In this document: positions 8,999 to 24,249 of the stretch, piece after piece
Layout of the letters: each line of letters begins with the position of its first letter
How positions within the stretch are numbered: position 1 is the stretch's first letter
Assembly: GCF_009687865.1 (NCBI RefSeq)
Contig: NZ_BLAE01000011.1
Location: forward strand, 84,774 to 148,773
DNA length: 64,000 nt
Reading direction: 5' to 3'
Source of the DNA: Acrocarpospora macrocephala
Lineage (GTDB): Bacteria; Actinomycetota; Actinomycetes; Streptosporangiales; Streptosporangiaceae
Made by a program: the position numbers and the translations under genes
The notes under the pieces: model-generated
What the model saw: the letters and a program-made list of their open reading frames with translations, nothing else
What the model was told of the DNA's origin: nothing
Databases searched by the model: none

Positions 8999-9031
8999 CG
9001 GAATCCCCCCAGAAAGAGGACCGTCCGCACT

Positions 9032-10901: not shown

Positions 10902-10914
10902 GATCCCCCCGAGG

Positions 10915-11649
10915 TTAGAAGAACGTCGGAACGGCACCCCTGCGGAACACGCGCCAGACCCAGATCTGCGCGCCAACCATGAGGGGAACAACTGGCAACA
11001 CCATAAGGCTCAGCACCGACAGTGTCGCCGACGGGGCGGCCTCACCGAGCACGTCAGAGGCCAGGACCGCCAGCGGCGCCACGACCGGCGCGACGGCCAC
11101 GGCCGCCGACAGCGCCAGCCCCCGGCCGGTACGGCTCGCGCCCTGCGCCACCGCCTCCCCGGGCAGCCGCCAGGCCAGGAACGTCCACCCGTGGAACGCG
11201 AACACCAGCGCGACCACCACCCCGTACGCCACACCCAGCAGCGCGGGCGCCCCGGTGATCCCCGCGATCACACCACCCCAGGACAGCGCCAGCCCCAGCG
11301 ACCCCGCCGCGACCGCCCCCGTCCAGAACGACCGCCAGCCGCTCCCGTCCAGCCTGCGCCGGAACCACAACCCCGCGTCCCGTACGACCCACGACACCAG
11401 CAACCCCACCACCACCGGGTAGAGCCCGCTCAGCACCTCCCCTTCCAGCACCGGGAAGGCCCCGAACAGCACGCCCGCGAGCGCGACCAGCCACACCTCG
11501 TTGGCCAGCACGAACGGCGCGATCGCCCCCACCGCCCGATCGCGCTCCCCGGTGAAGGGCAGCAGCAGCCCGACCCCGATGTCGAAGCCCTCCAGGGCGA
11601 AGTAGCCGGCCAGCAGGACGGCGAGAATCCCGAACCAGAGGATCTCCAC
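10915..11649 (-). CDS. cydB: Cytochrome bd oxidase subunit II, short form
   Basis: Membrane subunit of the quinol oxidase. It begins with VEILWFGILAVLLAGY and the family signature GYFALEGFDIGVG, and ends with a final helix QIWVWRVFRR. At 244 residues with about seven predicted helices it is some 80-130 residues shorter than common CydB proteins of 330-380; the segment usually carrying FPNVMPSS is reduced. The GTG start at 11649 follows AAAGGAG. It is 265 bases from cydA and directly upstream of cydDC. Confidence 0.88.
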   Translation of the reverse strand: MEILWFGILAVLLAGYFALEGFDIGVGLLLPFTGERDRAVGAIAPFVLANEVWLVALAGVLFGAFPVLEGEVLSGLYPVVVGLLVSWVVRDAGLWFRRRLDGSGWRSFWTGAVAAGSLGLALSWGGVIAGITGAPALLGVAYGVVVALVFAFHGWTFLAWRLPGEAVAQGASRTGRGLALSAAVAVAPVVAPLAVLASDVLGEAAPSATLSVLSLMVLPVVPLMVGAQIWVWRVFRRGAVPTFF

Positions 11650-11914
11650 GACAGCTCCTTTCAACGCGATCTAGCCAGGAACCTAGGGCGTTCGCGCCCG
11701 AGAGGAATGGCTTCCCTATTTGTGGTTGCGCTGTTACTGTTGGTGATGCGGTGACGGGATTGAACGCACCCGGCTTGCCGGGGAACGGCTCCACGATCTG
11801 TTATCGGCACCGCGATACGCGGCATGGCCTGCCATGCCGGGCAGTGAGTCACGCTGCCGTACGCGGCCTGAACTGTCGAAACCATCGACGGCGAGGAGCT
11901 GCGAGCTCGGTCGT
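11650..11914. other. cydA-cydB spacer with a short hairpin
   Basis: cydA and cydB usually abut; here 265 bases separate them. No convincing gene was seen. The near-perfect palindrome CGGCATGGCCTGCCATGCCG at 11820-11839 could attenuate readthrough or act as a processing site. A separate cydB promoter is possible but none was identified. Confidence 0.4.
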
Positions 11915-13084
11915 TCATAGCCGAGAAGCTGACAAAGTCAGGACGGGCTGCTCGCCCAGCGCGATCAGCGCGGGACCGCGCCGGATCAGGCGGGCGATCA
12001 GCAGGTAGTCGACGACGGCCAGCATGCCGAGCACCCCGACGAAGGCGAGGAACGACAGCATGATCTGCCCCGCGGTCAGCCCGGGGGTGAGCGCGTCGGC
12101 GACGGTGAGCTTGCCGTAGATGAGCCAGGGCTGGCGGCCTTCCTCGCGGGCGATCCAGCCGAGCACCAGGGCGATGAACGGCAGCGGCGTGAGCAGCATC
12201 AGCACCGGCTGGGCCCACCGCCAGCGCGGCAGCCACTTGACGCACGCCAGCAGCAGGAAGGTGATCAGCTGCAGCGTCTCGCCGATCGTCTGCATGCTGC
12301 CGAGCCCGATTCCGGCGAGCGTGTTCGCGGACCATTTGTCCGGCTGAGCCGTCTCGACGAACCCGAACTGGGCGTATCCGAAGCCGACCGTGAGGAACCC
12401 GCCCACGAAGGCCGTCACCACGCCGATCCGCAGCGAGGTCGTGAAGAACGCCCGTTCCGCGGTCCGCCGGAACAGCTGGTACGCGCTCGCCCCCATCACC
12501 ACGCACCCCGCGGTCAGCAGCCCGGCGGAGAGCACGTGGGGCAGCGCCATCACCAGCGTCGGATTGCCGAGCAGCGCCCCGAAGTCGGTGAGCGCCAGCC
12601 GGTCGCCCTGAACGGTCGCCCCGGCGGGGTTCTGCAGGAAGGAGTTGGCCACCATGATCCAGAACGCCGACGCGTACGCGGTCAGCGTCACCAGCCAGAT
12701 GCAGGCCAGATGGAGCCGTTTCGGCAGCCGGTGCCACCCGAAGATCCACAGGCCCAGGAAGGTCGACTCAAGGAAGAACGCGACCAGCGTCTCGATGGCC
12801 AGCGGCGCGCCGAACACGTCGCCCGCGTAATGCGAGAGCCCGCTCCAGCTCATCCCGAACTGGAACTCCATCACCAGGCCGGTGACGATGCCGAGCGCGT
12901 AGTTGGTGACATAGATCTGACCCCAGAACCGGGTCATCCGCTCGTGTTCGGGGTTGCCGGTGCGCACGTAGCGGGTGTTCATGATCGCGACAAGGGGGGC
13001 CAGGCCGAGTGTCAGCGCCACGAACAGGAAGTGCAGGCTTCCTGTCACGGCGAACTGCAGCCGGGCCAGGTCAAGAACGTCCAT
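11915..13084 (-). CDS. cydA: Cytochrome bd oxidase subunit I, lacking the Q-loop
   Basis: A 389-residue heme and quinol-binding subunit with nine predicted membrane helices. Conserved features are His18 in GSLHFLFVALTLG (heme b595 ligand), the helix IETLVAFFLESTFLGLWIFG with both family Glu residues, a His in ALPHVLSAG, and GRQPW after helix 8. Only about 20 residues separate helices 6 and 7, where Escherichia coli CydA has a periplasmic Q-loop of over 100. In my hand alignment the Met that ligates heme b558 falls on Leu. The ATG follows AGGAG, and the divergent padR lies across a 78-base operator region. Confidence 0.88.
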   Translation of the reverse strand: MDVLDLARLQFAVTGSLHFLFVALTLGLAPLVAIMNTRYVRTGNPEHERMTRFWGQIYVTNYALGIVTGLVMEFQFGMSWSGLSHYAGDVFGAPLAIETLVAFFLESTFLGLWIFGWHRLPKRLHLACIWLVTLTAYASAFWIMVANSFLQNPAGATVQGDRLALTDFGALLGNPTLVMALPHVLSAGLLTAGCVVMGASAYQLFRRTAERAFFTTSLRIGVVTAFVGGFLTVGFGYAQFGFVETAQPDKWSANTLAGIGLGSMQTIGETLQLITFLLLACVKWLPRWRWAQPVLMLLTPLPFIALVLGWIAREEGRQPWLIYGKLTVADALTPGLTAGQIMLSFLAFVGVLGMLAVVDYLLIARLIRRGPALIALGEQPVLTLSASRL

Positions 13085-13102
13085 GAGGCTCCTTATGTGT
13101 GA

Positions 13103-13141
13103 CTACATATAGGGAGCCTACATGTAGACTGCCTACATGAG
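13103..13141. promoter_or_regulatory. Three-box operator between cydA and padR
   Basis: CTACAT occurs at 13103, 13118 and 13133, exactly 15 bases apart. The middle box, CTACATGTAG (13118-13127), is a perfect palindrome and the first, CTACATATAG, is nearly so. ATGT/ACAT dyads are the known type of PadR-family site. The position between divergent cydA and padR suggests autoregulation and control of the oxidase operon. Confidence 0.7.
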
Positions 13142-13162
13142 AAATCCGGATAAGGTAAAGGC

Positions 13163-13498
13163 GTGAACGCCGACGCGCTCCGCGGGCATCTGGACGCCCT
13201 GCTCCTCTCGGTGCTCGAACACGAGCCGCAGCACGGCTACGCGATCATCGAGGCGCTGCGTGACCGCAGCGGCGGCGTGCTCGACCTGCCCACCGGAACG
13301 ATCTATCCCGCCCTGCGCCGGTTGGAGCGCGCGGGCTACCTGGCCAGCGAGTGGGCCACCGTCGGCGGCCGCAGACGCCGCACCTACCGCCTGACCGGCG
13401 CGGGCCGCGCCGAACTGGCGGGTGAGAGATCCGCCTGGACCTCCTTCACCAGCGTGATCGGCAGCGTGCTCAACCCCTCGCGTGAACCTTCGAGCTGA
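13163..13498 (+). CDS. PadR family transcriptional regulator
   Basis: A 111-residue winged-helix protein. LDALLLSVLEHEPQHGYAII, TGTIYPALRRLERAGYLAS and RRRRTYRLTGAGRAEL are the characteristic PadR helices and wing. Short PadR proteins of this type bind ATGT/ACAT dyads as dimers. It is divergent from cydA across a matching operator, and its 3' end overlaps by 29 bases a convergent gene for a prefix-domain membrane protein, the usual neighbour of PadR genes. The start is GTG. Confidence 0.9.
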   Translation: MNADALRGHLDALLLSVLEHEPQHGYAIIEALRDRSGGVLDLPTGTIYPALRRLERAGYLASEWATVGGRRRRTYRLTGAGRAELAGERSAWTSFTSVIGSVLNPSREPSS

Positions 13499-14156
13499 CC
13501 TTCGAGCTGACACTGAGGCAGCGCGCCGCGCCCCACAGCTGCCACCCCCACAGCGCCACGCTGAGTAAGGTCGCCACCGTTCCAGGCGGGTACGCCGCCA
13601 TGTTCACCGCGTGCTGCGAACCCCAGATCAGCCCTCCGCACAGCACGGCCATCACCGGCATCTGCCCGATCACGAGCAGCCCGAGCGAGCGGGTCAGCAC
13701 GCGTGGGCGGCGGCCGCGGCGCAAGCCGTACAGGACGAGGCCGCTCAGGATCCCGGTGCCGAACTGCAGGTAGTCGACGGTGACCGCGACCCCGCCGAAC
13801 CAGCCGGGCTTGGCCGCCGTCTCGGCCGCCGGGAAGACGTGCCAGATCAGCGACCACATGAGCGCGGTGAGCGGCACGGTGATGAACAGCACCGCCGCCG
13901 TCCTGCGGCCCTGACCGGCGGTGAGCTCCTCCTGGTAGCCGGGCGCGATCACGTCGATCGGCCCGAACTCCTCGACCGCGAGCCGCTCGGCGCGCTCCCG
14001 GTCGAGCCCGCCGGCCTGGTAGGCCTCGGCGGCGTCGAGCAGGCCGTCGCGCGCCTCCGCGAGCATGTCCCGCTTCAACCGCCCAGGCCCGTGCAGGGTA
14101 CGGCCCAGCCGGGCGACATACCCCTCGACGGTCTCTGTGGCGGTTAAAGTCTCCAT
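13470..14156 (-). CDS. Membrane protein with permease prefix domain 1
   Basis: A 228-residue protein. The first 75 residues (GYVARLGRTLHGPGRLKRDM, then REDAL-like RERAERLAVEEFG) match the permease prefix domain often paired with PadR regulators. About four to five hydrophobic helices follow from residue 85. The C-terminus contains SSKVSSKV, encoded by a 12-base tandem duplication at 13487-13510 that also contains the padR stop codon. Function unknown; pairing with PadR suggests an export or stress role. Confidence 0.75.
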   Translation of the reverse strand: METLTATETVEGYVARLGRTLHGPGRLKRDMLAEARDGLLDAAEAYQAGGLDRERAERLAVEEFGPIDVIAPGYQEELTAGQGRRTAAVLFITVPLTALMWSLIWHVFPAAETAAKPGWFGGVAVTVDYLQFGTGILSGLVLYGLRRGRRPRVLTRSLGLLVIGQMPVMAVLCGGLIWGSQHAVNMAAYPPGTVATLLSVALWGWQLWGAARCLSVSSKVSSKVHARG

Positions 14157-14237
14157 GGTCGCCTGACAGGCTACGCGTTCCCGCGGCCGGGCGGCATCAG
14201 GGTGAACCCTGACCCCGGCCTCGGGGAACCCTCATGC

Positions 14238-15488
14238 TCAGCCGTGCAGCCCGTCGTGCTGGGTGGCGACCGGCGGCACGGTGGGCCGGTGCCCGATCGG
14301 GCGGCGCGAGCTCGGCTGCGGCGTGGCCGACAGCACCAGCGCGGCCACCGTCACCACGGCCACCAGCGCGAACCAGGTGACCTTGACCATGCGTAACCGC
14401 GGCGTCTTCTTCTCGCGGTTCTCGCGACGAAAGGGCCAGCGGGGCGGCCAGCTGAGCCGCAGCTGGTGGCCGCCGCGCGGCGTGCTCGCGAACACGCAGT
14501 CCCGCAGCCGCAGCCGCTCGGGCCCGACCACCCCCGGCAGGTGGCAGCCGCTCAGGTCGGCGCCGTCGATGGTCAGCTCCTCGGCGTCCAGCCGGTCCAC
14601 CGACACCACCCGGATCTCCCCGCCGCGCCGGGTCACGCTGGACGTCCCCCGGCTGACCAGGCCGCGCAGATCCAGGTCCGCGTCACCGAGCCGGACCACC
14701 AGCCGCCCCAGCACCCGGGCCCCGTCCAGCACCACCGGACAGCCGCTCGCGTCGATCTCCACCGCTCCCTGCGCCCGCGCCTCGGTCAGCACCAGCCTCC
14801 TGGCCACCGCCGACGGCGCCAGGAACGCCTTCCCGACGAACCGCACCGACTCGAACCCGGACGAACCGTCGAACCCGGTCCGCCGGAACGACACCGCCCG
14901 CCAGAAGCGCGCGCCCCGGAAGGTGGCGTCCCCATGGAAACGGGTCCGGTCGAAGGACGCGAACCCGTGGAACTCGGCCGTGCGGAACGACGCCGAGCCC
15001 AGACACGCCTCGCCGAACAGGGCGTCGCTGGTGAGCACGGCCTCGTCCAGCGAGAGGTGGCCGCGCACGCGGGAGCCGTACAGGGAGAATTCACGGGCGA
15101 AGCGGACCCGGTGGAAGCTGGCGTTGCCGCCGAAGCTGGTGCCGAAGAACGAGGCGAGGCCGTCGAAGCGGGCGCCGTCGAAGGAGGCGTCGCCGGTGAA
15201 CGTGGCGTCACCGAAGCGGACCGCGGACAGGAACCTGGCCTGGTCGAATCTGGCCCGGCCGATGGTGTGGCGGGTGGCGGCCAGGATCCGGGCGAGTAAC
15301 TCGCCGGTGATCACGGTGCCGCGCAGGTCAACCGCCTGCCCGGGGAACAGACCCCGGAGGCACTCCCCCAGCTCATCGGCGTCCAGATGGCGCAGGCAGC
15401 GTCCGTAAGGCTGCCACGCCACCCCTATGCAGTCGGCACTTGTGGTGCACACGCTCCAGGACAGCAGATGCCTCATAGCCAAGGGCAT
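14238..15488 (-). CDS. Pentapeptide-repeat-like protein with C-terminal membrane anchor
   Basis: A 416-residue protein from the chosen ATG at 15488; the frame is open 32 codons further but that part looks non-coding. A Cys-containing N-terminal region (CTTSADCIGVAW, then CLRHL) precedes VDLRGTVITGEL. Residues about 90-240 repeat an A-x-F pattern every five residues (ATFTGDASFDGARFDG), predicting a right-handed quadrilateral beta helix. A single hydrophobic segment near the C-terminus (WFALVAVVTVAALVL) would anchor it, with the tail outside. Function unknown. Confidence 0.7.
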   Translation of the reverse strand: MPLAMRHLLSWSVCTTSADCIGVAWQPYGRCLRHLDADELGECLRGLFPGQAVDLRGTVITGELLARILAATRHTIGRARFDQARFLSAVRFGDATFTGDASFDGARFDGLASFFGTSFGGNASFHRVRFAREFSLYGSRVRGHLSLDEAVLTSDALFGEACLGSASFRTAEFHGFASFDRTRFHGDATFRGARFWRAVSFRRTGFDGSSGFESVRFVGKAFLAPSAVARRLVLTEARAQGAVEIDASGCPVVLDGARVLGRLVVRLGDADLDLRGLVSRGTSSVTRRGGEIRVVSVDRLDAEELTIDGADLSGCHLPGVVGPERLRLRDCVFASTPRGGHQLRLSWPPRWPFRRENREKKTPRLRMVKVTWFALVAVVTVAALVLSATPQPSSRRPIGHRPTVPPVATQHDGLHG

Positions 15489-15925
15489 ACCCAGAAGTGG
15501 CTCCCCCGCTCCCTTCGGAGGCAGCTTATCGCCACCACTTCCACGACTCGGCGAAGAATAAGCACCGCCTGCCACGGCAGGCACCGCTATTTCTTCCTGC
15601 GAGCTTCAGTACGAAGTGTCAAATATGACGCTGTTTCCGTTTTAGGACACCGATGGGCTGAGATGTCGGGATCAAGTGCCTTCACGCTGCGGATCATGCG
15701 TGCGTTACGGCCGCGTCACCGAGTTCAGCGGCTGGACCGAGCTCTCCCTGGTCACCCAGGTGGACGTCTGCAGAATAGGCCGAAGCAACGGTCTCCTCGG
15801 GCGGTCGTACCTTCCAGCGCACCGACCGAACTCCTACGGCGAGGAAGTCCCCTTGACGTCCGAGTGGGAGACGACGGAAGGTCTGAAGCGCACGCTCCAC
15901 CCACACTTCGGCGAAGAGGATGGTC
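15489..15925. other. Gene-poor stretch at the edge of the accessory region
   Basis: About 437 bases with frames open on both strands but no composition, start site or family I can support. A 95-codon plus-strand frame at 15676-15963 overlaps the next small gene and has no ribosome site. GC content drops locally near 15600-15650. I see no gene here. Confidence 0.5.
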
Positions 15926-16093
15926 ATGCGGCTGACGTTTCTCGGCAAGGACACCAAAGATGACGGCTCGCCGACCCTCTACTCAACTGAGCGCGACACC
16001 TATCTGATCCAGGGATGGATCGTCACCGACACGGCCGTACTCGCCAAGTTTCGGCTATGCCCCCGCACGAGACCTCATCCGCGGCCGAGATGA
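15926..16093 (+). CDS. Small actinobacterial protein (MRLTFLGKD type), possibly frameshifted
   Basis: A 55-residue frame starting MRLTFLGKDTKDDGSPTLYS, with GAGGA before the ATG. From memory, small actinobacterial proteins of this kind read LTFLGKD..SPTLYATD..TYLVQGW and end with an (M/I)PxHET segment. Here the end in frame is Arg/Pro-rich, while an adjacent frame reads MPPHETSSAAEM at the expected point, so a single-base indel near 16050 may have broken the C-terminus. It lies about 100 bases upstream of the radical SAM gene. Confidence 0.5.
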   Translation: MRLTFLGKDTKDDGSPTLYSTERDTYLIQGWIVTDTAVLAKFRLCPRTRPHPRPR

Positions 16094-16190
16094 ATGCTGA
16101 CCTATTGGCATCGGAGCTCTTCTGCCCGCCTCGGACGGGGCCTTCGAAGTTCGCTGAGATCACCGATCCGATTCCTCTGGGAGGTTGATC

Positions 16191-17294
16191 GTGCGAAAGT
16201 CCCTGATCGTCGAAACCTCGGCCAACTCATGCTATTTCAGGACATCCGTCGGCGGCGAGGGCCGCAAGGCCCTCATACAGATCAGTGAGCGCTGCAATCT
16301 TCACTGCGCGCATTGCTTCGTGTCTTCCGTCAAAAAGGGCCGCGACATCTCCTACACCGATCTGGTCGAGAAGGTCATCCCCAGACTGCAGCGTGCCCGA
16401 GTCGAGCGGATCACCCTGACCGGCGGCGAGCCGTTCGTACATCCCAGCATCATGGATATCTGCCGCCACCTCACCTCCCTCGGAATACCGGTAGGGATCT
16501 GCACCAACGCCACCCGCACCTCTGATGAGCAGATCATCGAACTGGCGGCCATGGGCGACATTCACATTAACGTGAGCCTGGACGGTTTCCGGCCGCAGAG
16601 CCACGGCAAGTTCCGGGGCGACGTCGCCTCTTTCGATCTCACTGTGGCGACCGTCCGCAAGTTCGCCGGAGCAGGACTGCTGCAAGGGCTGCTGTCCACC
16701 CCGAATGTACTCACTGACGTCGAGGAGTTCGCGGCGCTGTGCGAGTTCGCCGTCGAGGTGGGCGCCACCTACGTGCTGATGAACCCGCTCTCATCGATGG
16801 GCCGAGGGGTCATGAGTAAGGGCCGGATGGCCGCGGCCGATGACAAGATGCGGGCCATCCGCGAGACCACCGAGCAGTTCCGGGAACGCGGCGTGAACCT
16901 GGTCCACATCCGTTTCCCCAACGATGACCTTCCCCTCGCCGGATGCGACGCGGGCAAACTCGTGTACGTCTTCGCTGACGGTGCCACAGCGGTATGCCCC
17001 TACTTGGTCTTCGCCGCTCGCACCCCTCAATCGCGCTACTCCGACGACGACTTCCTGGTGGGCAACATACTGGACGGCGAGGTCACCGGGCCGCTGGATG
17101 ACTACGACCTGGCCGGGATACTCCAGATGGGTACCAACGCCACCTGCCGGTCGTGCTCCCTCAACAGTTCCTGCGGCAAGGGCTGCCCCGCCGCGGTGAT
17201 CTCGCGGGGCATGGCGATCGGGGACGTTGACGCCGAACAGTGCCCCGTGACTGACGGCCGACCGCTGCTGCAGATCCAACGGCGATCGGCATGA
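16191..17294 (+). CDS. Radical SAM protein with C-terminal SPASM-like Cys cluster
   Basis: A 367-residue radical SAM enzyme. The [4Fe-4S] motif CNLHCAHC gives Cys35, Cys39 and Cys42; LTGGEPFVHPSI is the SAM-binding GGE motif. C-terminal Cys residues in VCPYLVF and CRSCSLNSSCGKGCP suggest auxiliary clusters as in SPASM/twitch proteins that modify peptides or small molecules. I chose GTG at 16191 because GGGAGG is 6-7 bases before it; a TTG two codons upstream is less likely. It overlaps the next gene by 4 bases. The substrate is unknown and no precursor peptide was found next to it. Confidence 0.85.
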   Translation: MRKSLIVETSANSCYFRTSVGGEGRKALIQISERCNLHCAHCFVSSVKKGRDISYTDLVEKVIPRLQRARVERITLTGGEPFVHPSIMDICRHLTSLGIPVGICTNATRTSDEQIIELAAMGDIHINVSLDGFRPQSHGKFRGDVASFDLTVATVRKFAGAGLLQGLLSTPNVLTDVEEFAALCEFAVEVGATYVLMNPLSSMGRGVMSKGRMAAADDKMRAIRETTEQFRERGVNLVHIRFPNDDLPLAGCDAGKLVYVFADGATAVCPYLVFAARTPQSRYSDDDFLVGNILDGEVTGPLDDYDLAGILQMGTNATCRSCSLNSSCGKGCPAAVISRGMAIGDVDAEQCPVTDGRPLLQIQRRSA

Positions 17295-17893
17295 CGTCCC
17301 CACTGTTCATCGCCGTGGAAGGCCCGAACGGGGTGGGCAAATCAACATCGGCGGCGCTGCTGGCCAAACGGCTTGCCGAACGGGGAGCGTCCGTCCATCT
17401 GACCACCGAACCGTCCGACAGCCCGCTGGGGCGGCTCGCGCGCTCCAGTGAATCGGGGTTGGCCGGGCGGGCGCTGGCCCTGGCGATCGCGGCTGACCGG
17501 GCCGCGCACCTCGATGCCGAGATCCTGCCCGCATTGGGAACCGGCCAGCATGTGATCAGTGATCGCTATGTCCAGTCCTCCCTGGTGCTCCAGCGGCTCG
17601 ATGGGCTGGGGCCGGCCGAGATATGGCGCTACAACGCCTTCGCCCGGCCACCGGACCTGTCGTTCTACCTCCAACACGACCCGCAGACCATTCAGACCCG
17701 ATTGAATGAACGCCGAATCCAGTCACGTCTGGAACGCGTCGGGACACCGGAGCGAGAACTGGAACTGTACGACGCGGCGTTCCGCTTTCTCGGACAGCGC
17801 GGGTGGCACCAGTTCCGCGTCGACTGCCGCGATCTAGACCCTGACGGTGTCGTCACCATAATGATCAACCAGCTCGACTTGCTGGCCACCTGA
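17291..17893 (+). CDS. Thymidylate kinase-like protein
   Basis: A 200-residue nucleoside-monophosphate kinase fold. The P-loop EGPNGVGKST is at residues about 10-19 and the DRY-type motif ISDRYVQSSLVLQ near residue 90 matches dTMP kinases. The lid region (LNERRIQSRLERVG) is Arg-rich as expected. The housekeeping tmk would not be expected here, so this is probably a specialised paralogue acting on a modified or unusual nucleotide (inference). It is translationally coupled to the radical SAM gene. Confidence 0.8.
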   Translation: MTSPLFIAVEGPNGVGKSTSAALLAKRLAERGASVHLTTEPSDSPLGRLARSSESGLAGRALALAIAADRAAHLDAEILPALGTGQHVISDRYVQSSLVLQRLDGLGPAEIWRYNAFARPPDLSFYLQHDPQTIQTRLNERRIQSRLERVGTPERELELYDAAFRFLGQRGWHQFRVDCRDLDPDGVVTIMINQLDLLAT

Positions 17894-17904
17894 AAGGGCG
17901 AATC

Positions 17905-18702
17905 ATGTTCTCCGTGCTCACGGTTAACATCGGCGCGGCAGCTCGTGACCGCGCTGAGCGCATGCTGGGCTGGCTCGCTTCCCGGCCTGAGCAGGTTTTC
18001 CTGCTGACCGAGACCAGCGCGGGCACCGGCACCACCTACCTGCTCGACCGGTTTCGGCAGGCTGGATGGGCGGTGATCAACACTCCCGATGTCGGGGACC
18101 GGGGCGCCGCGCTGGTCAGCCAAGTGCCAGTTGTAGACCAGGCGTGGCCACTGCGCGAGGTGTCCATCCCCGGCCGAGTCGCCGCCGCGCTCCTGGACAC
18201 CCAGCCCGCCACCTATGTCGTCGCGCTCTATGTGCCATCCAGGGATCGCAGCCAAGCCAAGACCGAACGCAAGCAGATATTCATCCGCTCTGTGGTGGAC
18301 GCTCTCGCCGGACTACCCGCTGACTACCGTGACAATCTTGTGCTCGGCGGCGACTACAACGTGATCACCCGCACCCACCGGCCCCTTCACCCGGGCTTCC
18401 TGCCGTTCGAGTTCGCATTCCTGGAAGCCCTCCAGGAGCACGGGCTGGCCGACGCCCACGATCACTGCTGGCCCGGCTCCCAGCCCTACAGCTGGATCGG
18501 CCGGACCGGAGATGGCTACCGCTATGACTACCTCCACGTAGGCAAGGCCCTGGCCGACCGCATCGGCTCCTGCGCCTACCTACACGAAACACGCGAACAG
18601 TCCTTGACCGACCACGCGGCCCAAACCCTGACACTGCATATCGATGCCACCATCCTGGACACGGGCGAGATGGCCGAGTCGGGGAAAATCGCGCTGTTCT
18701 AA
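17905..18702 (+). CDS. Endonuclease/exonuclease/phosphatase (EEP) fold protein
   Basis: A 265-residue metal-dependent phosphoesterase. EEP motifs in order: LTVNIG (residue 4), LLTETSAG (about 33), LGGDYNVI (about 150), YRYDYLHVGK (about 205) and SLTDHAAQ with the catalytic DH pair (about 232). This superfamily cuts DNA, RNA ends, nucleotides or inositol phosphates. It is 11 bases downstream of the kinase gene with GAAAGGG before the ATG, so the three genes form one operon. The 3' end overlaps the convergent CYTH gene by 4 bases. Confidence 0.8.
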   Translation: MFSVLTVNIGAAARDRAERMLGWLASRPEQVFLLTETSAGTGTTYLLDRFRQAGWAVINTPDVGDRGAALVSQVPVVDQAWPLREVSIPGRVAAALLDTQPATYVVALYVPSRDRSQAKTERKQIFIRSVVDALAGLPADYRDNLVLGGDYNVITRTHRPLHPGFLPFEFAFLEALQEHGLADAHDHCWPGSQPYSWIGRTGDGYRYDYLHVGKALADRIGSCAYLHETREQSLTDHAAQTLTLHIDATILDTGEMAESGKIALF

Positions 18703-19268
18703 GCCGGTGCCAGGGCCGCTCGCACCAGCGAATCGTAGGTGTCGGTGGTGCGCTCCAACGCCACCCCGAACGAGCGGGCGAAGGTGTCCAGGTGCTCCTG
18801 TGCGGCGGTTCCGGACTCGTTCGTGTCGAGGACTTTCTCGATCTCCAGGAACTGTCCCGCGTGCTCGACCTCGTCGACGCACAGCGCCATCCCGGCCACG
18901 TGCGCGGTCCGGCGCGTCTTCACGATGCGGACGGTCGGCTGGAATCCCATCTGGAGGATCGCCTGGTGCATTTGGTCGCGGTCGGCCACCTCGGATTCAT
19001 GTTCCAGGCAGGCCAGTTCGTTGGCCAGGGGCGTCTTCACCGTGAACAGATGCCGACCGTCCTGGGTACGGAGACGGGCGAACGGCACACCGATCTTGGA
19101 CTGGCCATACGCCCAGTCAGGATGCGCGTACGCCTGATCGTCCTGAAATATCGGGGCAGAAAGAACCAGCCCACGCTCTACCAGGGCACGCTCCAGGCCA
19201 GGCAGATCAAACAGCCGATACTTGACCTCGATCTCCTGCACTCTGGCCGCCCCTGTATCACCGCTCAC
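18699..19268 (-). CDS. CYTH-domain protein (CyaB/thiamine-triphosphatase-like)
   Basis: About 189 residues if the GTG at 19268 is used; a GTG at 19241 (VQEIEVKYR) is an equally possible start. EIEVKYR near the start is the ExExK signature, followed by PFARLRTQDGRHLFTVKTP, VKTRRTAHV and LCVDEVEHAGQFLEIEKVL, which supply the basic and acidic ring of the triphosphate tunnel. CYTH enzymes act on triphosphates: class IV adenylate cyclase, thiamine triphosphatase and polyphosphate types. It is convergent with the EEP gene, suggesting it belongs to the same functional group. Confidence 0.8.
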   Translation of the reverse strand: MSGDTGAARVQEIEVKYRLFDLPGLERALVERGLVLSAPIFQDDQAYAHPDWAYGQSKIGVPFARLRTQDGRHLFTVKTPLANELACLEHESEVADRDQMHQAILQMGFQPTVRIVKTRRTAHVAGMALCVDEVEHAGQFLEIEKVLDTNESGTAAQEHLDTFARSFGVALERTTDTYDSLVRAALAPA

Positions 19269-19406
19269 TTCTGTCGCGTGAAGCCTAGCGGGGACCTCCT
19301 TGGGGAACCCAGACATCGGGAAAAGGCAAGAACGCCTTCCGGGCGGGCCGGACGAGCACCGCAAGGCGCACACGCTGCTCGGCCTGTCACCCCGAGGCGG
19401 CACCTC

Positions 19407-19703
19407 ATGAGCGAGCACGCTGACGACATCGACCCGAAGGACTTCCCGGCCGACCTGCTGGATGCCGTATACCTGAGGGTGCTGGCCAACGGCATCCCCT
19501 GGCACCCCGACGCGGTCCGCATCCTCGCCGCCGCGCTGCTCACCGAGGCGCGCGAGCGAATCGCTCAGGCCGTGGAAGAGGCATGCATCGACCCTGACTG
19601 GCCGAGCGACGACGTCTCCAGCAACGGAGCCCTGGCCGTTGCCGTTGTGCGCGGCTGGCCCGACACCAACCCCAACTCCGAAAGCGAGGCGACACCGCGA
19701 TGA
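19407..19703 (+). CDS. Small acidic hypothetical protein
   Basis: A 98-residue frame starting MSEHADDIDPKDFPADLLDA, acidic and mostly helical, ending Ser/Pro-rich. The start follows GAGGCGG. Its TGA overlaps the ATG of the next frame by 4 bases, a sign of coupling. I do not recognise the family. No membrane segment or signal peptide. Confidence 0.55.
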   Translation: MSEHADDIDPKDFPADLLDAVYLRVLANGIPWHPDAVRILAAALLTEARERIAQAVEEACIDPDWPSDDVSSNGALAVAVVRGWPDTNPNSESEATPR

Positions 19704-20519
19704 GTATCCACAGCATCCCCGAAATTGCTCCGCAGCAGGAGAACTTCCGCCTGGAGGACGTGCCCGGGCTGGGCATGGTGACGCCACGCCGCGACCCTGT
19801 CGAGCCGGTCCCGGTCGGCTCCTACATCGCACGCGTCTTCCGCGTGAAGGCTACGACCCCGACTGCGATGGGTCGCTCATGGCACGCTTGGAAGGTGTCG
19901 ACCTGGACGGCGAGACGACCGGGTGGACGGAGACCCACCTCGGCATGTACCGCGACTGCAGCTGGTTGCTGGACGGCCCGGGTGATCTGGACGCGCTGGC
20001 CGGCAGGAAACCGCCCCTCCCGTACATCCAGTGGACGCCGAGCGAGCCGCCCTTCCCGCGGGTCGTGGTGGACGAGAGTACCGGCGGGCCGGTCGACCAG
20101 CTGGTCCGTGTGGGCCTTCGCCACCACGATGTGGGCCAACAGCCCGGAGGCCCGTGCCGCGATGCCGCCGAGCCAGGCGGCCACGGGCGAGCTCCGGGAG
20201 GCGCTGCTGCAGCTGCTCGAACTCGGCGTGATCGACGTGGACCAGGAGCGGTTGAAAGCGCTGTACGCGTCGGGTCTCAGACCAGCCCTGGACCGCCCTG
20301 GCGCACAATGCGAACTTCTCGTACAGGTTCCCGCTCGTGCCATGCCAGCTAAAGTTCCCCGACGGCTGCCAAGGGGCGGGCTGGATGACCGCGTCGAAGG
20401 GCGGCCTCGTCGAGCTCGGCGGCGACGGCTCGTTCCCCGCCGCACCCGCCACAGGACCAGGCGGCCGAGGAGACCGGCGTTCTCCTGAAGCAGACAAGTC
20501 GTTGGGCGGGACCACCTGA
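19700..20519 (+). pseudogene. Decayed hypothetical gene with about three frameshifts
   Basis: It starts with ATG coupled to the previous gene and reads MSIHSIPEIAPQQENFRLED in frame 2 to about 19845. Protein-like sequence then continues in frame 1 (GYDPDCDGSLMARLEGVDLD, LGMYRDCSWLLDGPGDLDAL) to about 20115, returns to frame 2 (VWAFATTMWANSPEARAAM, LREALLQLLELGVIDVDQ) to about 20280, and shifts to frame 3 (WTALAHNANFSYRFPLVPCQ, GWMTASKGGLVELGGD) until the stop at 20519. The pieces look like one protein of about 270 residues broken by indels. No family was recognised. Local sequence error is the alternative. Confidence 0.55.
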
Positions 20520-20592
20520 AGCTTCTTGAACTCGGTGCCCTCGTCGAATTCCTCGGCGTCGACGGCAGTGGCATGACCTCTCGCCGTACGTG

Positions 20593-20736
20593 ATGACTGC
20601 GCACGACCAGCAGGTAGAGGAGGCCCGGAGGATTCGTCAGCTCGTACATGGAATGTACGAGGGTGCGCGTTTTGTGGGGGAATTGCGGATGGTTGAGCCC
20701 TACCTCAGGGCGACCTTCGGGAAGCCGCGTGGTTGA
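20593..20736 (+). pseudogene. Short frame, possible 3' remnant of a gene
   Basis: A 47-codon frame reading MTAHDQQVEEARRIRQLVHG and ending ATFGKPRG, helical and protein-like, with no ribosome site before the ATG. The same frame is open upstream but becomes Arg-rich and unlike protein, suggesting a truncated gene end. A strong hairpin begins 2 bases after the stop. Confidence 0.35.
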
Positions 20737-20738
20737 AC

Positions 20739-20772
20739 CTCCGGGCCGCACCGGGAAGGGGGCGGCCCGGAG
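20739..20772. terminator. Bidirectional hairpin terminator
   Basis: Perfect 11-bp stem (20739-20749 with 20762-20772) and a 12-base loop, lying exactly between the stop codon of the plus-strand fragment and the stop codon of the minus-strand micro-protein. Confidence 0.7.
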
Positions 20773-20778
20773 TCACGC

Positions 20779-20913
20779 TCACACCGGGAGCATCGAAGCG
20801 TCGACGCCCAGCACTGCACCAACCACGATGATGATCGTGATCACGATGACGCGCAGGTGGCGACCCCAGGATTCGGGGAGTGACAGTGTGCAGTTGAGCT
20901 CGAGTTGTGCCAT
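20779..20913 (-). CDS. Single-pass membrane micro-protein, unrecognised
   Basis: A 44-residue protein. After MAQLELNCTLSLPESWGRHL a strongly hydrophobic helix (RVIVITIIIVVGAVLGV) spans residues about 21-37, followed by DASMLPV. GGAGG lies 5 bases before the ATG and a strong hairpin follows the stop, so both gene boundaries are supported. Such proteins may be toxins, regulators of membrane complexes or parts of surface systems; nothing here decides. It is missed by a usual length cut-off. Confidence 0.6.
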   Translation of the reverse strand: MAQLELNCTLSLPESWGRHLRVIVITIIIVVGAVLGVDASMLPV

Positions 20914-21402
20914 GCGGACCTCCGACGAGTTGAACCTTCGTGACTCGCACTTGGCCGCCGGGCTTCGCGGGCCGGGCTTTCGAATCCGCAGTACTCTGGC
21001 GCTGGATGAACGGGTACTTAGCGGCTCGGGTCCCGGACGGGGCCTGACGGCTGTACCTCTGGAGGGGCTCGGACCGCGTCAACGGTCCGAGCCCTTCGTC
21101 GTGCGTGAGGTACGGGCAGAACCATAGCGACCGTCACCTACAGGCTGGGGACAAGCCGCAATGACGTCACGAGGCCCCCGGTTGGTCGATTGTTGGCTTC
21201 TTGTATGTGTTTGTCCTTGCAGTTACTTCGACGAAAAGGGAGTGGGGAAAGTGTTCGCGCTCATACAGTCACACCCCTACCGACACATAGGATGATCCAC
21301 AAAGAGGTGAGGCGGCCCGGGCGCCAACCCCGAGACCGCCCCAAACCTCATCCGCACCATGCTTCACGGCTGTCCCAAATGTACGTCCTTGGGGAGGCCG
21401 TC
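20914..21402. other. Gene-poor stretch with one strong hairpin
   Basis: About 490 bases containing the 21063-21096 hairpin and an AT-richer patch near 21180-21260 that could hold the promoter of the downstream decayed gene. Plus-strand frames here read as low-complexity Arg/Pro/Ser and are not supported as genes. Confidence 0.5.
21063..21096. terminator. Strong hairpin, probable terminator
   Basis: A perfect 12-bp GC-rich stem (21065-21076 with 21083-21094), extended by a G:T and an A:T pair, around a 6-base loop. No gene clearly ends just before it on either strand, so it may insulate the micro-protein from upstream transcription. Confidence 0.55.
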
Positions 21403-22082
21403 ATGTCCGATGACCAGCACATTTCACCACCCGGCGCGTGTCTAGGCCTCTGCAATCACGGCGCACGCCAACTGCTGCGGAAGTTCCACGAAATCCTGCT
21501 CCTCCATGCCGCAGAAGTCGACGCCTGGTACGCCGACGGCGAGAAGGGCTCCATACCCCTCCCTTGGGCGCAACAGGGGTCGAATGCATGTTCGCATCCA
21601 GGACGCCGGATACACCTGGACCGGCGAGTTGATTACGAAGCGACACTGCACGTGGTCGTGGCTACTGGCCTATGCACACACCAAGAACGGGCCGCGCTGG
21701 CTGGACCTCTGCGCCGCCTGTGACCTCTGCGGGCCATCCCGCAGACGCTCGCCGCCGACCTTCCCGAAGGCGCAAAGGATGTCGCCCGCCACTGGTGCAC
21801 ATCCTGCGGCCCGACCGACCCGCCGATGCCCGCCACCAAGTGGACCGGCATTCCGCCCTGTCCGCGCAGTGGCTCGCAATGGCGCTGGTATGGCCGGATA
21901 GCCGATCGAGACGGTACCGCCATCGAGCCGCCGCCCGGGGAGTGCGCAGACTGCTGGGAGTGGCGCCGCTACCGCCTGCCCAGGAGCACTTCGGCTGGGC
22001 ATGGTGGGGTATCTGTACACACCGAACCATGGACTGCGAGCACGGTCACGACCACCACGGCGGCGAGGTGTGGCTGGCCTGA
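21403..22082 (+). pseudogene. Decayed Cys-rich hypothetical gene with about three frameshifts
   Basis: The ATG at 21403 has an excellent GGGGAGG ribosome site and reads MSDDQHISPPGACLGLCNHG onward in frame 1 to about 21575. Protein-like sequence continues in frame 2 (MHVRIQDAGYTWTGELITK, WSWLLAYAHTKNG, LCAACDLCG), returns to frame 1 (VARHWCTSCGPTDPPMPATK, PPPGECADCWEWRRYRLP) and finishes in frame 3 (EHFGWAWWGICTHRTMDCEH) with TGA at 22080-22082. Several CxxC pairs suggest zinc binding. The first shift coincides with one copy of the 24-bp repeat. Family not recognised. Confidence 0.55.
21571..21594 (+). repeat. 24-bp direct repeat, copy 1
   Basis: 23 of 24 bases match the copy at 23574-23597 (mismatch G/A at the ninth base). 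The core TCGAATGCATGTTCG is nearly palindromic. This copy lies inside a decayed gene, at the point where its reading frame changes. Confidence 0.8.
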
Positions 22083-22242
22083 GCCGAATTGGCCATTGCA
22101 TGATCGAGCCCGTCAACTGATGCCGCCTGACCCGCTCGCCGCGCCTCCCGACCAGCACTTCGAGCAGTAGCCCCTGCGGAGCTTCCCCGCCGTCGCCTCG
22201 GTCTTGCACGCCTTGCCTCAGCATGCCACCTACGGCTGCGGG

Positions 22243-23508
22243 ATGATGCGGTTCATGAAGGACTCAAACACCCGCTGGACGCCGAAGTCTGAAGCGGAGC
22301 TGAAGGCCGCCGTCGATGGCCGTCTTCTGGGGGAGGGCCATTTCCTTGACTTCAAGGAGCAGCCCAACAGCAACAACAAGGAGTCGGCGCGGGACATGGC
22401 GTCGTTCGCCATCGACGGCGGCATGCTGATCATCGGGGTGAGCGAGGATAAGGACGCGGGCACGTTCGACCTCGCTCCGCAGCCGCTCAAGGGGCTGGGC
22501 GAGAAGTTCGAGCAGATCGCCCGCTCTGTTCCTACTCCGTCCCTCGCCGTTCTCACGGAGCTGATCCCGTCGGAGGCTGACCCCACCCAGGGGTACCTTG
22601 TGATCCACATTCCCGTCAGCCCGGGAGCCCCGCACATGGTGGAGGGCCGCTACTGGGGGCGGGGCGACAAGACGAAGCACTACCTGTCCGATCCTGAGGT
22701 TGCCCGACTCCACCAGCTGCGACGGAATGTCGAACAGGACGCGCTCGGACTACTCGCCCAGGAGATGGCCGAAGATCCGATCCCGGCGGAGCTGCGTCAT
22801 CAGGCCCACCTGTTCGTCGTAGCCCAGCCGGTCGGCGGCCGCGACGACATGCTGGACGGTCTGATCAATGGGCCCGGCTGGCGTCTGGACATCGCCGAGT
22901 TGGTCCGCGGCGCCGCCTATCCGCAGGTGCCCGACTACGACCCGGCCTTCTCCTACGCCAACGGCGGATACCGTCGGCGTGAGGGCATCGCACTCTCCTC
23001 CCGCAATCTCGGCGAGGGCCGCATATTCACCGGAAGCCCCGACCAGAAGCTGTCCACCTGGGAAGAGGTTCTAGAACTGCGCTTCCATGAGGACGGCGGG
23101 ATGCGCCTCTACTACAGCCGGCTGTCCGACCGCCTCGACGGCAGCGGTCAGCAGGCGATCCTGGACGCCGTCATGGTGAGCTACACGCGCCGATTCCTGG
23201 CCCTGCTGACCGCGGTGTCGGAGCGGGCCGGCTTCTACGGCAACTGGGCTCTGGCCGTGGGTGCCAACGGTCTGGACGGACTGTCTGCGATGCCCACGGG
23301 CAGCATGTCCCGATTCGACACGCTCGGCACGTATGACGGCGACACCTACACCAAAGGCGTCCAGGTGACCTGGGCCGAGCTTACGAGCACACCAGCGGCG
23401 ATCACGCGTAAGCTCACCGGCCGGTTTCTTCGGGCCATCGCCCGTGAAGAGCGGAATGAGGCGTACCTCACCGATCCCGCGGGCCAGGCGCAGGCCCAGC
23501 CGGTGTAA
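22243..23508 (+). CDS. AlbA_2 (Schlafen-type) putative nucleic-acid/ATP-binding protein
   Basis: A 421-residue protein from the ATG at 22243; other nearby starts are possible. Residues about 15-150 form an AlbA_2 domain: GEGHFLDFKEQ, KESARDMASFAIDGGMLIIG and APHMVEGRYWGRGDKTKHYL are the usual blocks with the Gly-rich turn after the substrate-contact FKE. The remaining 270 residues are not recognised. AlbA_2 domains occur in Schlafen RNases and in many bacterial regulators and defence proteins. It stands alone, with a perfect hairpin after its stop, between two copies of a 24-bp repeat. Confidence 0.75.
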   Translation: MMRFMKDSNTRWTPKSEAELKAAVDGRLLGEGHFLDFKEQPNSNNKESARDMASFAIDGGMLIIGVSEDKDAGTFDLAPQPLKGLGEKFEQIARSVPTPSLAVLTELIPSEADPTQGYLVIHIPVSPGAPHMVEGRYWGRGDKTKHYLSDPEVARLHQLRRNVEQDALGLLAQEMAEDPIPAELRHQAHLFVVAQPVGGRDDMLDGLINGPGWRLDIAELVRGAAYPQVPDYDPAFSYANGGYRRREGIALSSRNLGEGRIFTGSPDQKLSTWEEVLELRFHEDGGMRLYYSRLSDRLDGSGQQAILDAVMVSYTRRFLALLTAVSERAGFYGNWALAVGANGLDGLSAMPTGSMSRFDTLGTYDGDTYTKGVQVTWAELTSTPAAITRKLTGRFLRAIAREERNEAYLTDPAGQAQAQPV

Positions 23509-23573
23509 CCGCCGACCCGGGTTCGGGCGCAGGCAAGCGTGTACTGGACACGATCAAGCTGGAGCACTCGTAA

Positions 23574-23597
23574 CAACAGGGATCGAATGCATGTTCG
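23574..23597 (+). repeat. 24-bp direct repeat, copy 2
   Basis: Second copy of the 21571-21594 sequence, 2003 bases away. Here the repeat forms the left arm, loop and part of the right arm of the hairpin at 23575-23606. The core TCGAATGCATGTTCGA also resembles the Gram-positive LexA box, with one mismatch in the half-sites. Confidence 0.8.
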
Positions 23598-23606
23598 ATC
23601 CCTGTT
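23575..23606. terminator. Hairpin terminator after the AlbA_2 gene
   Basis: Perfect 13-bp stem (23575-23587 with 23594-23606) and a 6-base loop, followed by AGTTT on the plus strand, 66 bases after the AlbA_2 stop codon. Confidence 0.75.
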
Positions 23607-24206
23607 AGTTTGGCCGTGTGAATGATTTGCGCCCAGTAGTCCAGATTTCAGGTGGCGGGTGGGCCCACCTGCACTCTGGCTGCACCGACCGTCCGGGAAG
23701 TGGCGTTCACGAGCAAGCTGGTGATGCTGGTGGCCACCTGGAGAGCCGGGCTAATCAGGCCGACGCGCGCCTGGAGGGCAGCGACGGCGGTTCACGTGCT
23801 GCGGAACGGGAGGCCGCCCACTACCGGAGCGGGGCCGACGAGCTCGCGCAGCTGCTCGCCGCTCCCCGTCGGGCGGCGGCCAAACCGGGAGCCCGTTCAC
23901 GATCAACAAATCCGGCATCAACCGCTACGCGGTGACCGTCGACGGGATCAGTTCGACCAGGGCGATGCGCCTCATTCTGCTGGTTCTGCTGTCTGACGCC
24001 ACCAACATCACCGCCAACACGGCGGCGTTCATCAGCGGCGTCTCATCCACCGCGGCGTCCAGCTGCATAGCCGACCTCGAAACCCGCGTCTGGGTCAGCG
24101 GGCAGCCGGTCAGCGGCCAGGTCGTCTACCGGCTCGCGGAGGGCATGTGGTGGTTCTTCATGAGTTTGTTGTGTATGTACGTCACGGCAGCCGAATGCGG
24201 AACGCG
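23607..24206. other. Gene-poor end of the accessory region
   Basis: About 600 bases. A GTG frame at 23618-23935 has an Ala/Glu-rich helical stretch (REAAHYRSGADELAQLLAA) and a later plus-strand frame near 23900-24170 reads partly hydrophobic, but neither has a ribosome site or a recognisable family. They may be remnants of one broken gene. No complete gene can be supported. Confidence 0.45.
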
Positions 24207-24240
24207 GATCGGCCGCGCCTCCCGAGTGGCGCGGCCGATC
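24207..24240. terminator. Hairpin terminator downstream of the htrA-like gene
   Basis: Perfect 13-bp stem (24207-24219 with 24228-24240) and an 8-base loop, 10 bases after the minus-strand stop codon of the serine protease gene. Confidence 0.75.
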
Positions 24241-24249
24241 TGGGCTGGG

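What the first reader, a model, noticed from the sequence alone, without database searches (positions are those of the whole stretch)
16191..19268. Radical SAM / thymidylate-kinase-like / EEP operon with a convergent CYTH gene
Three tightly coupled genes (4-base overlap, then an 11-base gap) encode a radical SAM enzyme with auxiliary Cys, a dNMP-kinase-like protein and an EEP phosphoesterase; a CYTH triphosphate-tunnel protein overlaps the end. All three companions handle nucleotides or phosphates. I infer a pathway that makes or destroys a modified nucleotide, which could be a signalling molecule, a nucleoside product or part of a defence system. I know of no characterised system with this set. 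The intact genes sit among decayed ones, which suggests selection.
Basis: partly seen in the sequence, partly recalled or inferred. Interest (0 to 1): 0.72.

Follow-up and report, generated by a model that had tools for sequence, protein, structure and literature searches.

The report
Radical-SAM nucleotide cassette with repair enzymes
Four neighbouring bacterial genes form a conserved, mobile cassette that probably makes an unusual DNA building block and carries enzymes to protect its own DNA from it; the product and purpose are unknown, which makes it a good target for finding a new nucleoside antibiotic or an anti-phage weapon.

Summary
In detail: an intact radical SAM (rSAM, SPASM type), a TMK-like kinase, an EEP enzyme and a convergent CYTH gene lie at 16191-19268. 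It is a conserved, horizontally spread unit. Of 56 loci with enough downstream DNA, 53 keep kinase and EEP beside the rSAM. The genome's second copy is similar over these four genes only, with dN/dS about 0.10-0.25. Relatives of the kinase sit beside other kinds of rSAM, and companions swap by role. The DNA-excision slot holds EEP (ExoIII/APE1 fold), a DEDDh exonuclease or an AlkA-like glycosylase; the triphosphate slot holds CYTH, Nudix or MazG. Two unrelated nucleases share a C-terminal LF tail: 34 of 51 EEPs, 8 of 8 DEDDh. Best reading: a maker of a deoxynucleotide analogue (antibiotic or anti-phage) with pool-cleansing and DNA-excision enzymes for self-protection. Chemistry and role are inferred, not shown; the test for nearby defence genes was inconclusive. 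Closest known: viperin-CMPK2 and the 4'-thiothymidine genes thmA-C. PADLOC apparently already lists an rSAM-TMK pair (PDC-M51) as a defence candidate.

The parts
16191..17294 (+). Radical SAM/SPASM enzyme (367 aa), core CxxxCxxC (C35, C39, C42) plus 7-Cys SPASM set (C252, C269, C319, C322, C328, C332, C351)
   Evidence: AlphaFold2 model mean pLDDT 80, Foldseek SuiB, SkfB, BlsE, anSME, viperin
17291..17893 (+). TMK-like nucleoside monophosphate kinase (200 aa); P-loop K17 invariant and R92 conserved in at least 95% of 52 sequences
   Evidence: (TIGR00041 102.1 bits, cut-off 83.25)
17905..18702 (+). EEP enzyme of ExoIII/APE1 fold (265 aa), catalytic-type residues N8, E36, D150, N152, D208, D236, H237 invariant in 21 sequences
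18691..18699 (+). Codons for the C-terminal ALF tail of EEP, resembling a sliding-clamp-binding motif (reading recalled, not tested)
18699..19268 (-). CYTH triphosphate-tunnel protein (189 aa; possible shorter start at 19241), ExExK motif kept; convergent with EEP
16139..19293 (.). Extent of similarity (87.8% over 3160 columns) to the second copy in the same genome (G000 contig C29, locus L099): the likely mobile unit

Best explanation
The four genes are a mobile cassette that makes a modified (probably deoxyribo-) nucleotide and protects the maker from it. Proposed steps: (1) the SPASM rSAM enzyme chemically alters a nucleotide or nucleoside (inferred). (2) The TMK-like kinase phosphorylates the altered monophosphate, or supplies the rSAM with its substrate as CMPK2 does for viperin (inferred; the kinase family and motifs are shown). 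(3) The analogue triphosphate poisons DNA synthesis of a phage or of a competitor (inferred). (4) CYTH, replaced elsewhere by MazG or Nudix, destroys the analogue triphosphate in the producer (replacement shown, activity inferred). (5) The ExoIII/APE1-fold EEP removes the analogue from the producer's DNA 3' ends, perhaps docked on the replication clamp through its C-terminal LF tail (fold and tail shown; activity and partner inferred). Related cassettes use other rSAMs with a DEDDh exonuclease or an AlkA-like glycosylase in the same role.
For: Synteny in 53 of 56 loci, with members in Patescibacteria (L056: TMK-rSAM-EEP-CYTH-Nudix) and Bacteroidota (L059: CYTH-rSAM-TMK-dNK-EEP). Among 51 loci with at least 3 kb downstream, 38 have CYTH, MazG or Nudix within 3.5 kb: CYTH 27, CYTH+Nudix 3, MazG 4, MazG+Nudix 1, Nudix 3. 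Of 21 other TMK-family loci examined, 10 are AlkA-like glycosylase / B12-rSAM / TMK followed by Nudix (8) or CYTH (2); 7 are SPL-like rSAM (a label by eye) / DEDDh / TMK, one also with a MazG-like gene; 1 has B12-rSAM and TMK with a DEDDh, an AlkZ-like and a weak MazG-like gene nearby; 3 are TMK alone. In a midpoint-rooted TMK tree without outgroup the other types nest among the SPASM-type kinases. Glycosylase call: NCBIfam AlkA 1.2e-5, PDB AlkA 5.6e-6 by profile. EEP fold: NExo, ExoIII and APE1 among the best Foldseek hits. C-terminal LF in 34 of 51 EEPs and 8 of 8 DEDDh proteins, against 0 of 923 other called proteins. Purifying selection between the two genomic copies. The 4'-thiothymidine genes have the same logic: rSAM, kinase and a triphosphatase that alone gives resistance (PMC12691670, section 7 read).
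Against: No substrate, product or activity is known. SPASM rSAMs mostly modify peptides (recalled), and the best Foldseek hit is a peptide maturase, SuiB. The best Foldseek hit of EEP is Crc, an RNA-regulating relative, just ahead of the DNA enzymes. CYTH occurs in 21 of 200 family genomes without the rSAM, so it may have another job. In 3 of the 12 rSAM-bearing family genomes the rSAM frame is broken or split (G027, G098, G178); 3 more (G004, G068, G187) have EEP and CYTH but no rSAM match at the limit used, and L058 has the rSAM alone. 13 of the 51 loci with at least 3 kb downstream lack a triphosphate enzyme within 3.5 kb; 6 of them have a CYTH within 9 kb and 7 none. 17 of 51 EEPs lack the LF end; the clamp reading rests on recalled motif knowledge, and most tails lack the usual Q. 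The MazG calls in L196 and L207 are below Pfam's cut-off. Pfam finds no family for the AlkA-like proteins. A repair or pool-cleansing system would use some of the same parts.
Confidence: 0.5

Rival explanations
1. Anti-phage defence in particular: the analogue triphosphate is made inside the cell and stops phage DNA synthesis (viperin-like), and EEP and CYTH spare the host. This is the intracellular branch of the best explanation.
For: In two of four IMG/VR contigs an endolysin gene, and in one of them a holin-like gene, lie about 4 kb upstream of the rSAM, as for prophage cargo; sporadic spread, 12 of 200 family genomes and 3 of 396 phylum genomes, the window's own included; PADLOC models PDC-M51A and PDC-M51B are matched by the rSAM and TMK of related cassettes, and our TMK matches PDC-M51B at 3.5e-11; GajA and GajB hits among the neighbours, which I place in L037 from the gene list; the viperin-CMPK2 parallel (PMC9132166, passages).
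Against: No clear enrichment of defence genes could be shown: strong hits come from few proteins both among 138 neighbours and among 135 control neighbours, and only 25 of 113 matched families were shown for the first set. P0001 matches no PDC-M51A. PDC systems are candidates, not tested; the two models carry no description.
Confidence: 0.3
2. DNA-modification pathway: MazG/Nudix/CYTH makes the monophosphate that rSAM alters, TMK lifts it back to the diphosphate, and the modified nucleotide is put into the cell's own DNA; the excision enzyme polices placement.
For: MazG and Nudix enzymes release NMPs from NTPs (family knowledge), which would feed rSAM and then TMK; the excision-slot enzymes are relatives of DNA enzymes. 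The phage Z-genome MazZ/PurZ logic is a recalled parallel.
Against: I noticed no dedicated polymerase and no recurrent regulator in the gene lists that I read, but I did not search for them.
Confidence: 0.12
3. Nucleotide-pool and DNA repair unit: rSAM reverses a base lesion, the triphosphate enzyme clears damaged dNTPs and the nuclease or glycosylase cuts lesions out of DNA.
For: The type C rSAM looks like spore photoproduct lyase (by eye only); AlkA, ExoIII, DnaQ, Nudix and MazG relatives are repair or cleansing enzymes.
Against: A kinase that activates the damaged monophosphate would be harmful (inference); rare, mobile, sometimes two-copy spread is unlike housekeeping repair; a profile of the type C rSAM found no solved relative of any kind.
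Confidence: 0.12
4. Peptide (RiPP) or cofactor maturation by the SPASM rSAM; the other genes attach or recycle a nucleotide on the product.
For: 7-Cys SPASM, Foldseek SuiB and SkfB, NCBIfam mycofactocin maturase 93.6 bits.
Against: Score far under that model's cut-off of 265; among 783 small ORFs in the 900 bases upstream, the 12 largest shared clusters printed are all confined to seven Micromonospora loci (regions downstream not scanned); the swaps to other rSAM kinds around the same kinase do not fit a peptide maturase.
Confidence: 0.08

Closest known systems
4'-thiothymidine genes thmA-C of Photorhabdus (PMC12691670; passages and section 7)
   Same: Minimal mobile cluster of radical SAM, nucleoside kinase and nucleoside triphosphatase; the triphosphatase gives self-resistance.
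   Different: Kinase is an AbmG relative rather than TMK-like; no DNA-excision enzyme in the section read; sequence kinship to our proteins not tested.
Viperin-CMPK2 (vertebrates) and prokaryotic viperins with kinases (PMC9132166, passages; PADLOC models)
   Same: rSAM beside a TMK-domain kinase, making a chain-terminating nucleotide against viruses.
   Different: Our rSAM is not a viperin (54.1 bits, cut-off 180), carries SPASM cysteines, and comes with CYTH and an ExoIII-fold enzyme.
PADLOC candidate PDC-M51 (A apparently an rSAM, B TMK-like)
   Same: Our TMK matches PDC-M51B; the rSAMs of L195 (3.5e-6) and L207 (8.9e-10) match PDC-M51A.
   Different: Our SPASM rSAM does not match PDC-M51A; PDC-M51 is an untested candidate. 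None of the 12 papers shown of 20 found holds its name; it was not searched for alone.
DNA-glycosylase self-resistance in biosynthetic clusters (AlkZ: PMC9040887, abstract; YtkR2 and TxnU from the search listing)
   Same: A DNA-excision enzyme kept beside toxin-making genes; an AlkZ-like gene even lies in L207.
   Different: In our cassette the excision enzyme is an ExoIII/APE1-fold protein; product unknown.
Oxetanocin OxsAB and albucidin (PMC7074753, passages)
   Same: rSAM acting on a deoxynucleotide; for oxetanocin also a phosphohydrolase.
   Different: Other rSAM kinds; no TMK-nuclease pair described in the passages seen (a thymidylate kinase gene lies on the same cloned albucidin fragment).

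Membership tests
Viperin / pVip | Scores above the family model over its whole length | tested here: not met
   NF038283 54.1 bits, cut-off 180; PADLOC pVip matches only residues 30-138
SPASM radical SAM | CxxxCxxC core plus seven auxiliary Cys in SPASM spacing (spacing recalled) | tested here: met
   All invariant in alignment A3, 21 sequences
RiPP maturase system | Conserved precursor peptide gene nearby | tested here: inconclusive
   None shared across genera in the 900 bases upstream, in the 12 largest clusters printed; downstream not scanned
dTMP kinase family (TMK) | Curated model score | tested here: met
   TIGR00041 102.1 of 83.25; PF02223 103.8 of 27
dTMP kinase family (TMK) | Phosphorylates dTMP | not testable with these tools
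   Substrate unknown
ExoIII/APE1 (EEP superfamily) | Fold and catalytic residues | tested here: met
   Foldseek E 1e-14 to 1e-13 to NExo, ExoIII, APE1 (best single hit Crc, 1.2e-14); catalytic-type residues invariant
ExoIII/APE1 (EEP superfamily) | Exonuclease III equivalog score | tested here: not met
   43.1 of 182.55 and 40.9 of 99.05: a divergent branch, not ExoIII itself
CYTH / TTM | CYTH domain score and ExExK | tested here: met
   PF01928 56 of 23.2; TIGR00318 59.1 of 57.95; E12, E14, K16 conserved in at least 95% of 37
CYTH / TTM | Triphosphatase or cyclase activity | not testable with these tools
   No assay
PDC-M51 (PADLOC candidate) | Both components A and B present | tested here: not met
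   B matched by our TMK (3.5e-11), A not matched by P0001; the type B locus L195 matches both weakly; for L207 only the rSAM was scanned
thmA-C (4'-thiothymidine) | Homology of each gene to thmA, thmB, thmC | not tested
   No sequence of those genes was at hand

The most novel reading that the evidence does not exclude
A modular class of mobile DNA-poison systems: different radical SAM enzymes paired with one family of TMK-like kinases make toxic deoxynucleotides. Each comes with antidotes, a triphosphate destroyer (CYTH, MazG or Nudix) and a DNA-excision enzyme (ExoIII-like, DnaQ-like or AlkA-like). The two nuclease kinds have each gained the same C-terminal LF tail, perhaps to ride on the sliding clamp and proofread the poison out of the host's own DNA. 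Phages and plasmids carry it as anti-phage cargo.
Probability: 0.33. Interest if true: 0.9.

Novelty: new variant of a known kind. Interest (0 to 1): 0.74.

Why it matters
If right, these cassettes form a compact family of natural makers of deoxynucleotide analogues whose products are unknown, with their own antidotes next door. That gives a direct route to new nucleoside antibiotics or antivirals and to the enzymes that resist them. It would also link bacterial anti-phage nucleotides (viperin-like) with DNA-repair self-resistance, and make a precise prediction: rSAM plus kinase should harm a cell that lacks the nuclease and the triphosphatase.

Tried and rejected
Viperin membership was rejected on score and architecture. 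A RiPP system was disfavoured: no upstream small ORF shared across genera in the clusters printed. Defence-island enrichment was tested with 138 neighbours of 29 type A loci against 135 control neighbours from 12 CYTH-only and 3 orphan-TMK loci. Two of the 140 proteins chosen were left out of the first set: the L100 CYTH, which belongs to the cassette, and one L101 protein (an omission of mine). At E 1e-15, 113 PADLOC families were matched in the first set, of which 25 were shown; most are repeat models of single GajA, GajB and pAgo-associated proteins, plus a type I methylase and OLD/AriA-like hits. The control matched 15 families (CRISPR genes, AbiLi, AriA and others). The tally does not name members, so this is inconclusive. 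Literature searches for the set listed no paper whose title or abstract start describes it; of the listed papers I opened only the two named. Profile A6 (type C rSAM) found no solved relative. P0003 found nothing in viral contigs, although one search shows contigs that hold such a gene, so that search simply missed them. Searching Patescibacteria and Bacteroidota found only the seed genomes, 1 of 332 and 1 of 296. My gene caller failed on some loci (L051, L063, L068), so synteny counts rest on HMM hits to ORFs of all frames. The APH-like label of a gene upstream in Micromonospora is by eye; Pfam finds nothing there.
Full report
OBSERVATION. Overlaps and gaps are as stated. Pfam and NCBIfam confirm radical SAM, thymidylate kinase and CYTH; EEP is below Pfam's cut-off but matches ExoIII models and folds as ExoIII/APE1 (mean pLDDT 91.8; Foldseek, where the single best hit is Crc, followed by NExo, AP endonucleases, ExoIII and APE1). 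The rSAM has all seven SPASM cysteines. The window lies in a 12.1 Mb genome. One same-genus genome, G027, has the same coordinates as the Acrocarpospora corrugata locus L060, so the genus is probably Acrocarpospora (inference).

CONSERVATION. A scan of one genome for each of 84,980 species gave 159 relatives, of which 80 were kept. 51 of these (L019-L069) are relatives at about 45% identity or more in the best segment; of the rest, L071 is a fragment, and L070 and L072-L098 lie at 23-36% and show no TMK or EEP hit. I examined 62 loci: the window, its second copy, L019-L069, L071, and eight from viral, plasmid and other genome searches. 61 have the rSAM, 56 have at least 1.8 kb downstream, and 53 of these keep both TMK and EEP. 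In the family sample 12 of 200 genomes have the rSAM (E 1e-40); by handle, all 12 also have EEP and CYTH. EEP was found in 17 (two of them distant, 33% identity; three, G004, G068 and G187, with CYTH but no rSAM match) and CYTH in 33 (E 1e-30). In three of the 12 (G027, G098, G178) the rSAM frame is broken or split. Spread is sporadic: 3 of 396 in the phylum, the window's own genome included, and only the seed genome in the Patescibacteria sample (1 of 332) and the Bacteroidota sample (1 of 296). Identity of 47-56% across phyla with such patchiness suggests horizontal transfer (inference).

MOBILITY AND SELECTION. The same genome carries a second copy on contig C29. Comparing window 8001-28000 with 19 kb around that copy, nucleotide similarity covers 16139-19293 only, that is, the four genes and little else. 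NG86 dN/dS: rSAM 0.043/0.293, TMK 0.086/0.336, EEP 0.061/0.242, CYTH 0.086/0.851: all under purifying selection, with CYTH more diverged at silent sites. Four IMG/VR contigs hold the rSAM, three of them with TMK and EEP in the stretch held; L113 ends with the rSAM. In L113 and L114 an endolysin gene, and in L114 a holin-like gene, lie about 4 kb upstream of the rSAM. In L100 a neck-protein-like gene lies about 3 kb away. Two records of the plasmid collection hold it, one of them a 5.7 Mb linear record.

THE FOURTH SLOT. In 51 loci with at least 3 kb downstream, CYTH lies within 3.5 kb in 30, MazG-like in 5 (Streptomyces, Embleya and one IMG/VR contig), Nudix alone in 3 (Lentzea, Nocardia, Saccharothrix), and none in 13, of which 6 have a CYTH within 9 kb. 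CYTH is convergent in the actinomycete loci listed but lies in the operon's direction in L056 and L059. L059 also has a deoxynucleoside kinase (PF01712, 1.6e-28): a nucleoside-to-nucleotide route in one operon. In seven Micromonospora loci an HD-like gene (below Pfam's cut-off) and a gene that looks APH-like by eye lie directly upstream.

OTHER CASSETTES WITH THE SAME KINASE. The TMK search found 54 places in 46 of 200 genomes at E 1e-20. About 13 belong to the SPASM-rSAM loci. Of the others I fetched 20, taken mostly from the top of the list, and had one more (L170). Three are orphans from the same genus. Ten are AlkA-like glycosylase, B12-rSAM, TMK, then Nudix (8) or CYTH (2). Seven are SPL-like rSAM (label by eye), DEDDh exonuclease, TMK (one with a MazG-like gene). 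One (L207) has B12-rSAM and TMK, with a DEDDh gene, an AlkZ-like glycosylase (PF06224, 1.4e-32) and a weak MazG-like gene nearby. The AlkA-like call rests on NCBIfam 1.2e-5 and a PDB profile match at 5.6e-6, with an HhH-GPD-like motif by eye; Pfam finds nothing there. Two further loci (L178, L179) pair a distant EEP with an aldo/keto reductase and a third kind of B12-rSAM (Pfam scores below cut-off in L178). In a FastTree tree, midpoint-rooted and without outgroup, the kinases of types B, C and D form one clade (18 tips, support 0.83) among the SPASM-type kinases, which suggests that rSAM and companions were exchanged around the kinase.

A SHARED TAIL. 34 of 51 EEPs end in LF, mostly ALF or TLF; all 8 DEDDh proteins examined end in LF (ALF, TLF, ELF). 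None of 449 other proteins around type A loci does so, and in the two later sets (240 and 244 proteins) the only LF ends are EEPs (2) and DEDDh proteins (8): 0 of 923 others, a number that includes up to three EEPs without the tail (L175, L178, L179). The sequences within each family are related, so this is two events at least, not 42. The distant EEPs of L178 and L179 carry QMSLL and QLSLL near the N-terminus. I recall QL(S/D)LF as the bacterial clamp-binding motif; this is a lead, not a test.

MECHANISM. See Best explanation. Shown: gene set, synteny, folds, catalytic-type residues, slot exchange, tail, selection, mobile context. Inferred: nucleotide as rSAM substrate, analogue product, target, self-protection by CYTH and EEP, clamp docking. 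The kinase argues for making rather than repairing: a repair unit should not activate a damaged monophosphate. The thmA-C precedent shows that rSAM, kinase and triphosphatase suffice for a nucleoside antibiotic and that the triphosphatase alone gives resistance (PMC12691670, section 7). An example of a 3' exonuclease undoing an rSAM-made chain terminator is nsp14 and ddhCMP (PMC9415739, abstract). Excision enzymes as self-resistance are known (PMC9040887, abstract).

DEFENCE OR ANTIBIOSIS. Open. For defence: prophage-like and plasmid carriage, the PADLOC PDC-M51 pair, and Gabija genes beside L037 (placed). Against or neutral: the neighbour test was inconclusive. PDC means 'phage defence candidate' (PMC11514479, passages).

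NOVELTY. Seven searches of the held library for the gene set listed no paper whose title or abstract start describes it. Parts and logic are known; the combination and its modular variants are, as far as these searches go, not described. I call it a new variant of a known kind (rSAM nucleotide-analogue makers).

Noticed in passing
window 22243-23505 (+): Schlafen/AlbA_2-domain protein (PF04326, E 8.3e-6), the next gene my caller accepts after 19703; in L037 a 482-aa protein that looks AlbA_2-like by eye (no Pfam match) lies just after EEP.
   Followed up: partly
window 7310-13084 (-): Run of genes that looks like cytochrome bd oxidase with its ABC exporter (cydAB-cydDC), with a thioredoxin-like gene at 6674-7039; read by eye.
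   Followed up: no
window about 15924-16060 (+), read by eye: Short reading frame resembling a 68-aa gene upstream of the second copy (L099 11267-11473), probably a decayed regulator-associated gene.
   Followed up: no
G000 contig C29:10691-11266: A further TMK-family kinase (45% identity), about 7 kb from the second copy of the cassette; neighbours not fetched.
   Followed up: no
L190, L191, L192 (G000 contig C31 and two same-genus genomes): Orphan TMK-family gene (58-61% identity to P0002) without rSAM, among the same neighbours in three genomes of the genus.
   Followed up: partly
L178 6597-10705; L179 5420-9560: Conserved cassette: aldo/keto reductase, EEP (33%) with an N-terminal QMSLL/QLSLL motif, a ~715-aa B12-rSAM-like protein, and a small protein with a nucleotidyltransferase-like pattern (by eye; weak DUF4269 match).
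   Followed up: partly
L066 4922-7905 (same region in L121): Zeta-toxin-like kinase (PF06414, 1.6e-25) and an HTH/metallopeptidase-like gene beside a second, divergent EEP next to a broken rSAM.
   Followed up: no
L063, L066, L068: Loci of other bacteria (two Dormibacterota, one Solirubrobacteraceae) with two EEP genes, one on each side of the rSAM.
   Followed up: no
CYTH copies, window against L099: CYTH silent divergence (dS 0.85) is 2.5 to 3.5 times that of the other three genes (0.24-0.34), which hints at a separate exchange of CYTH between copies.
   Followed up: no
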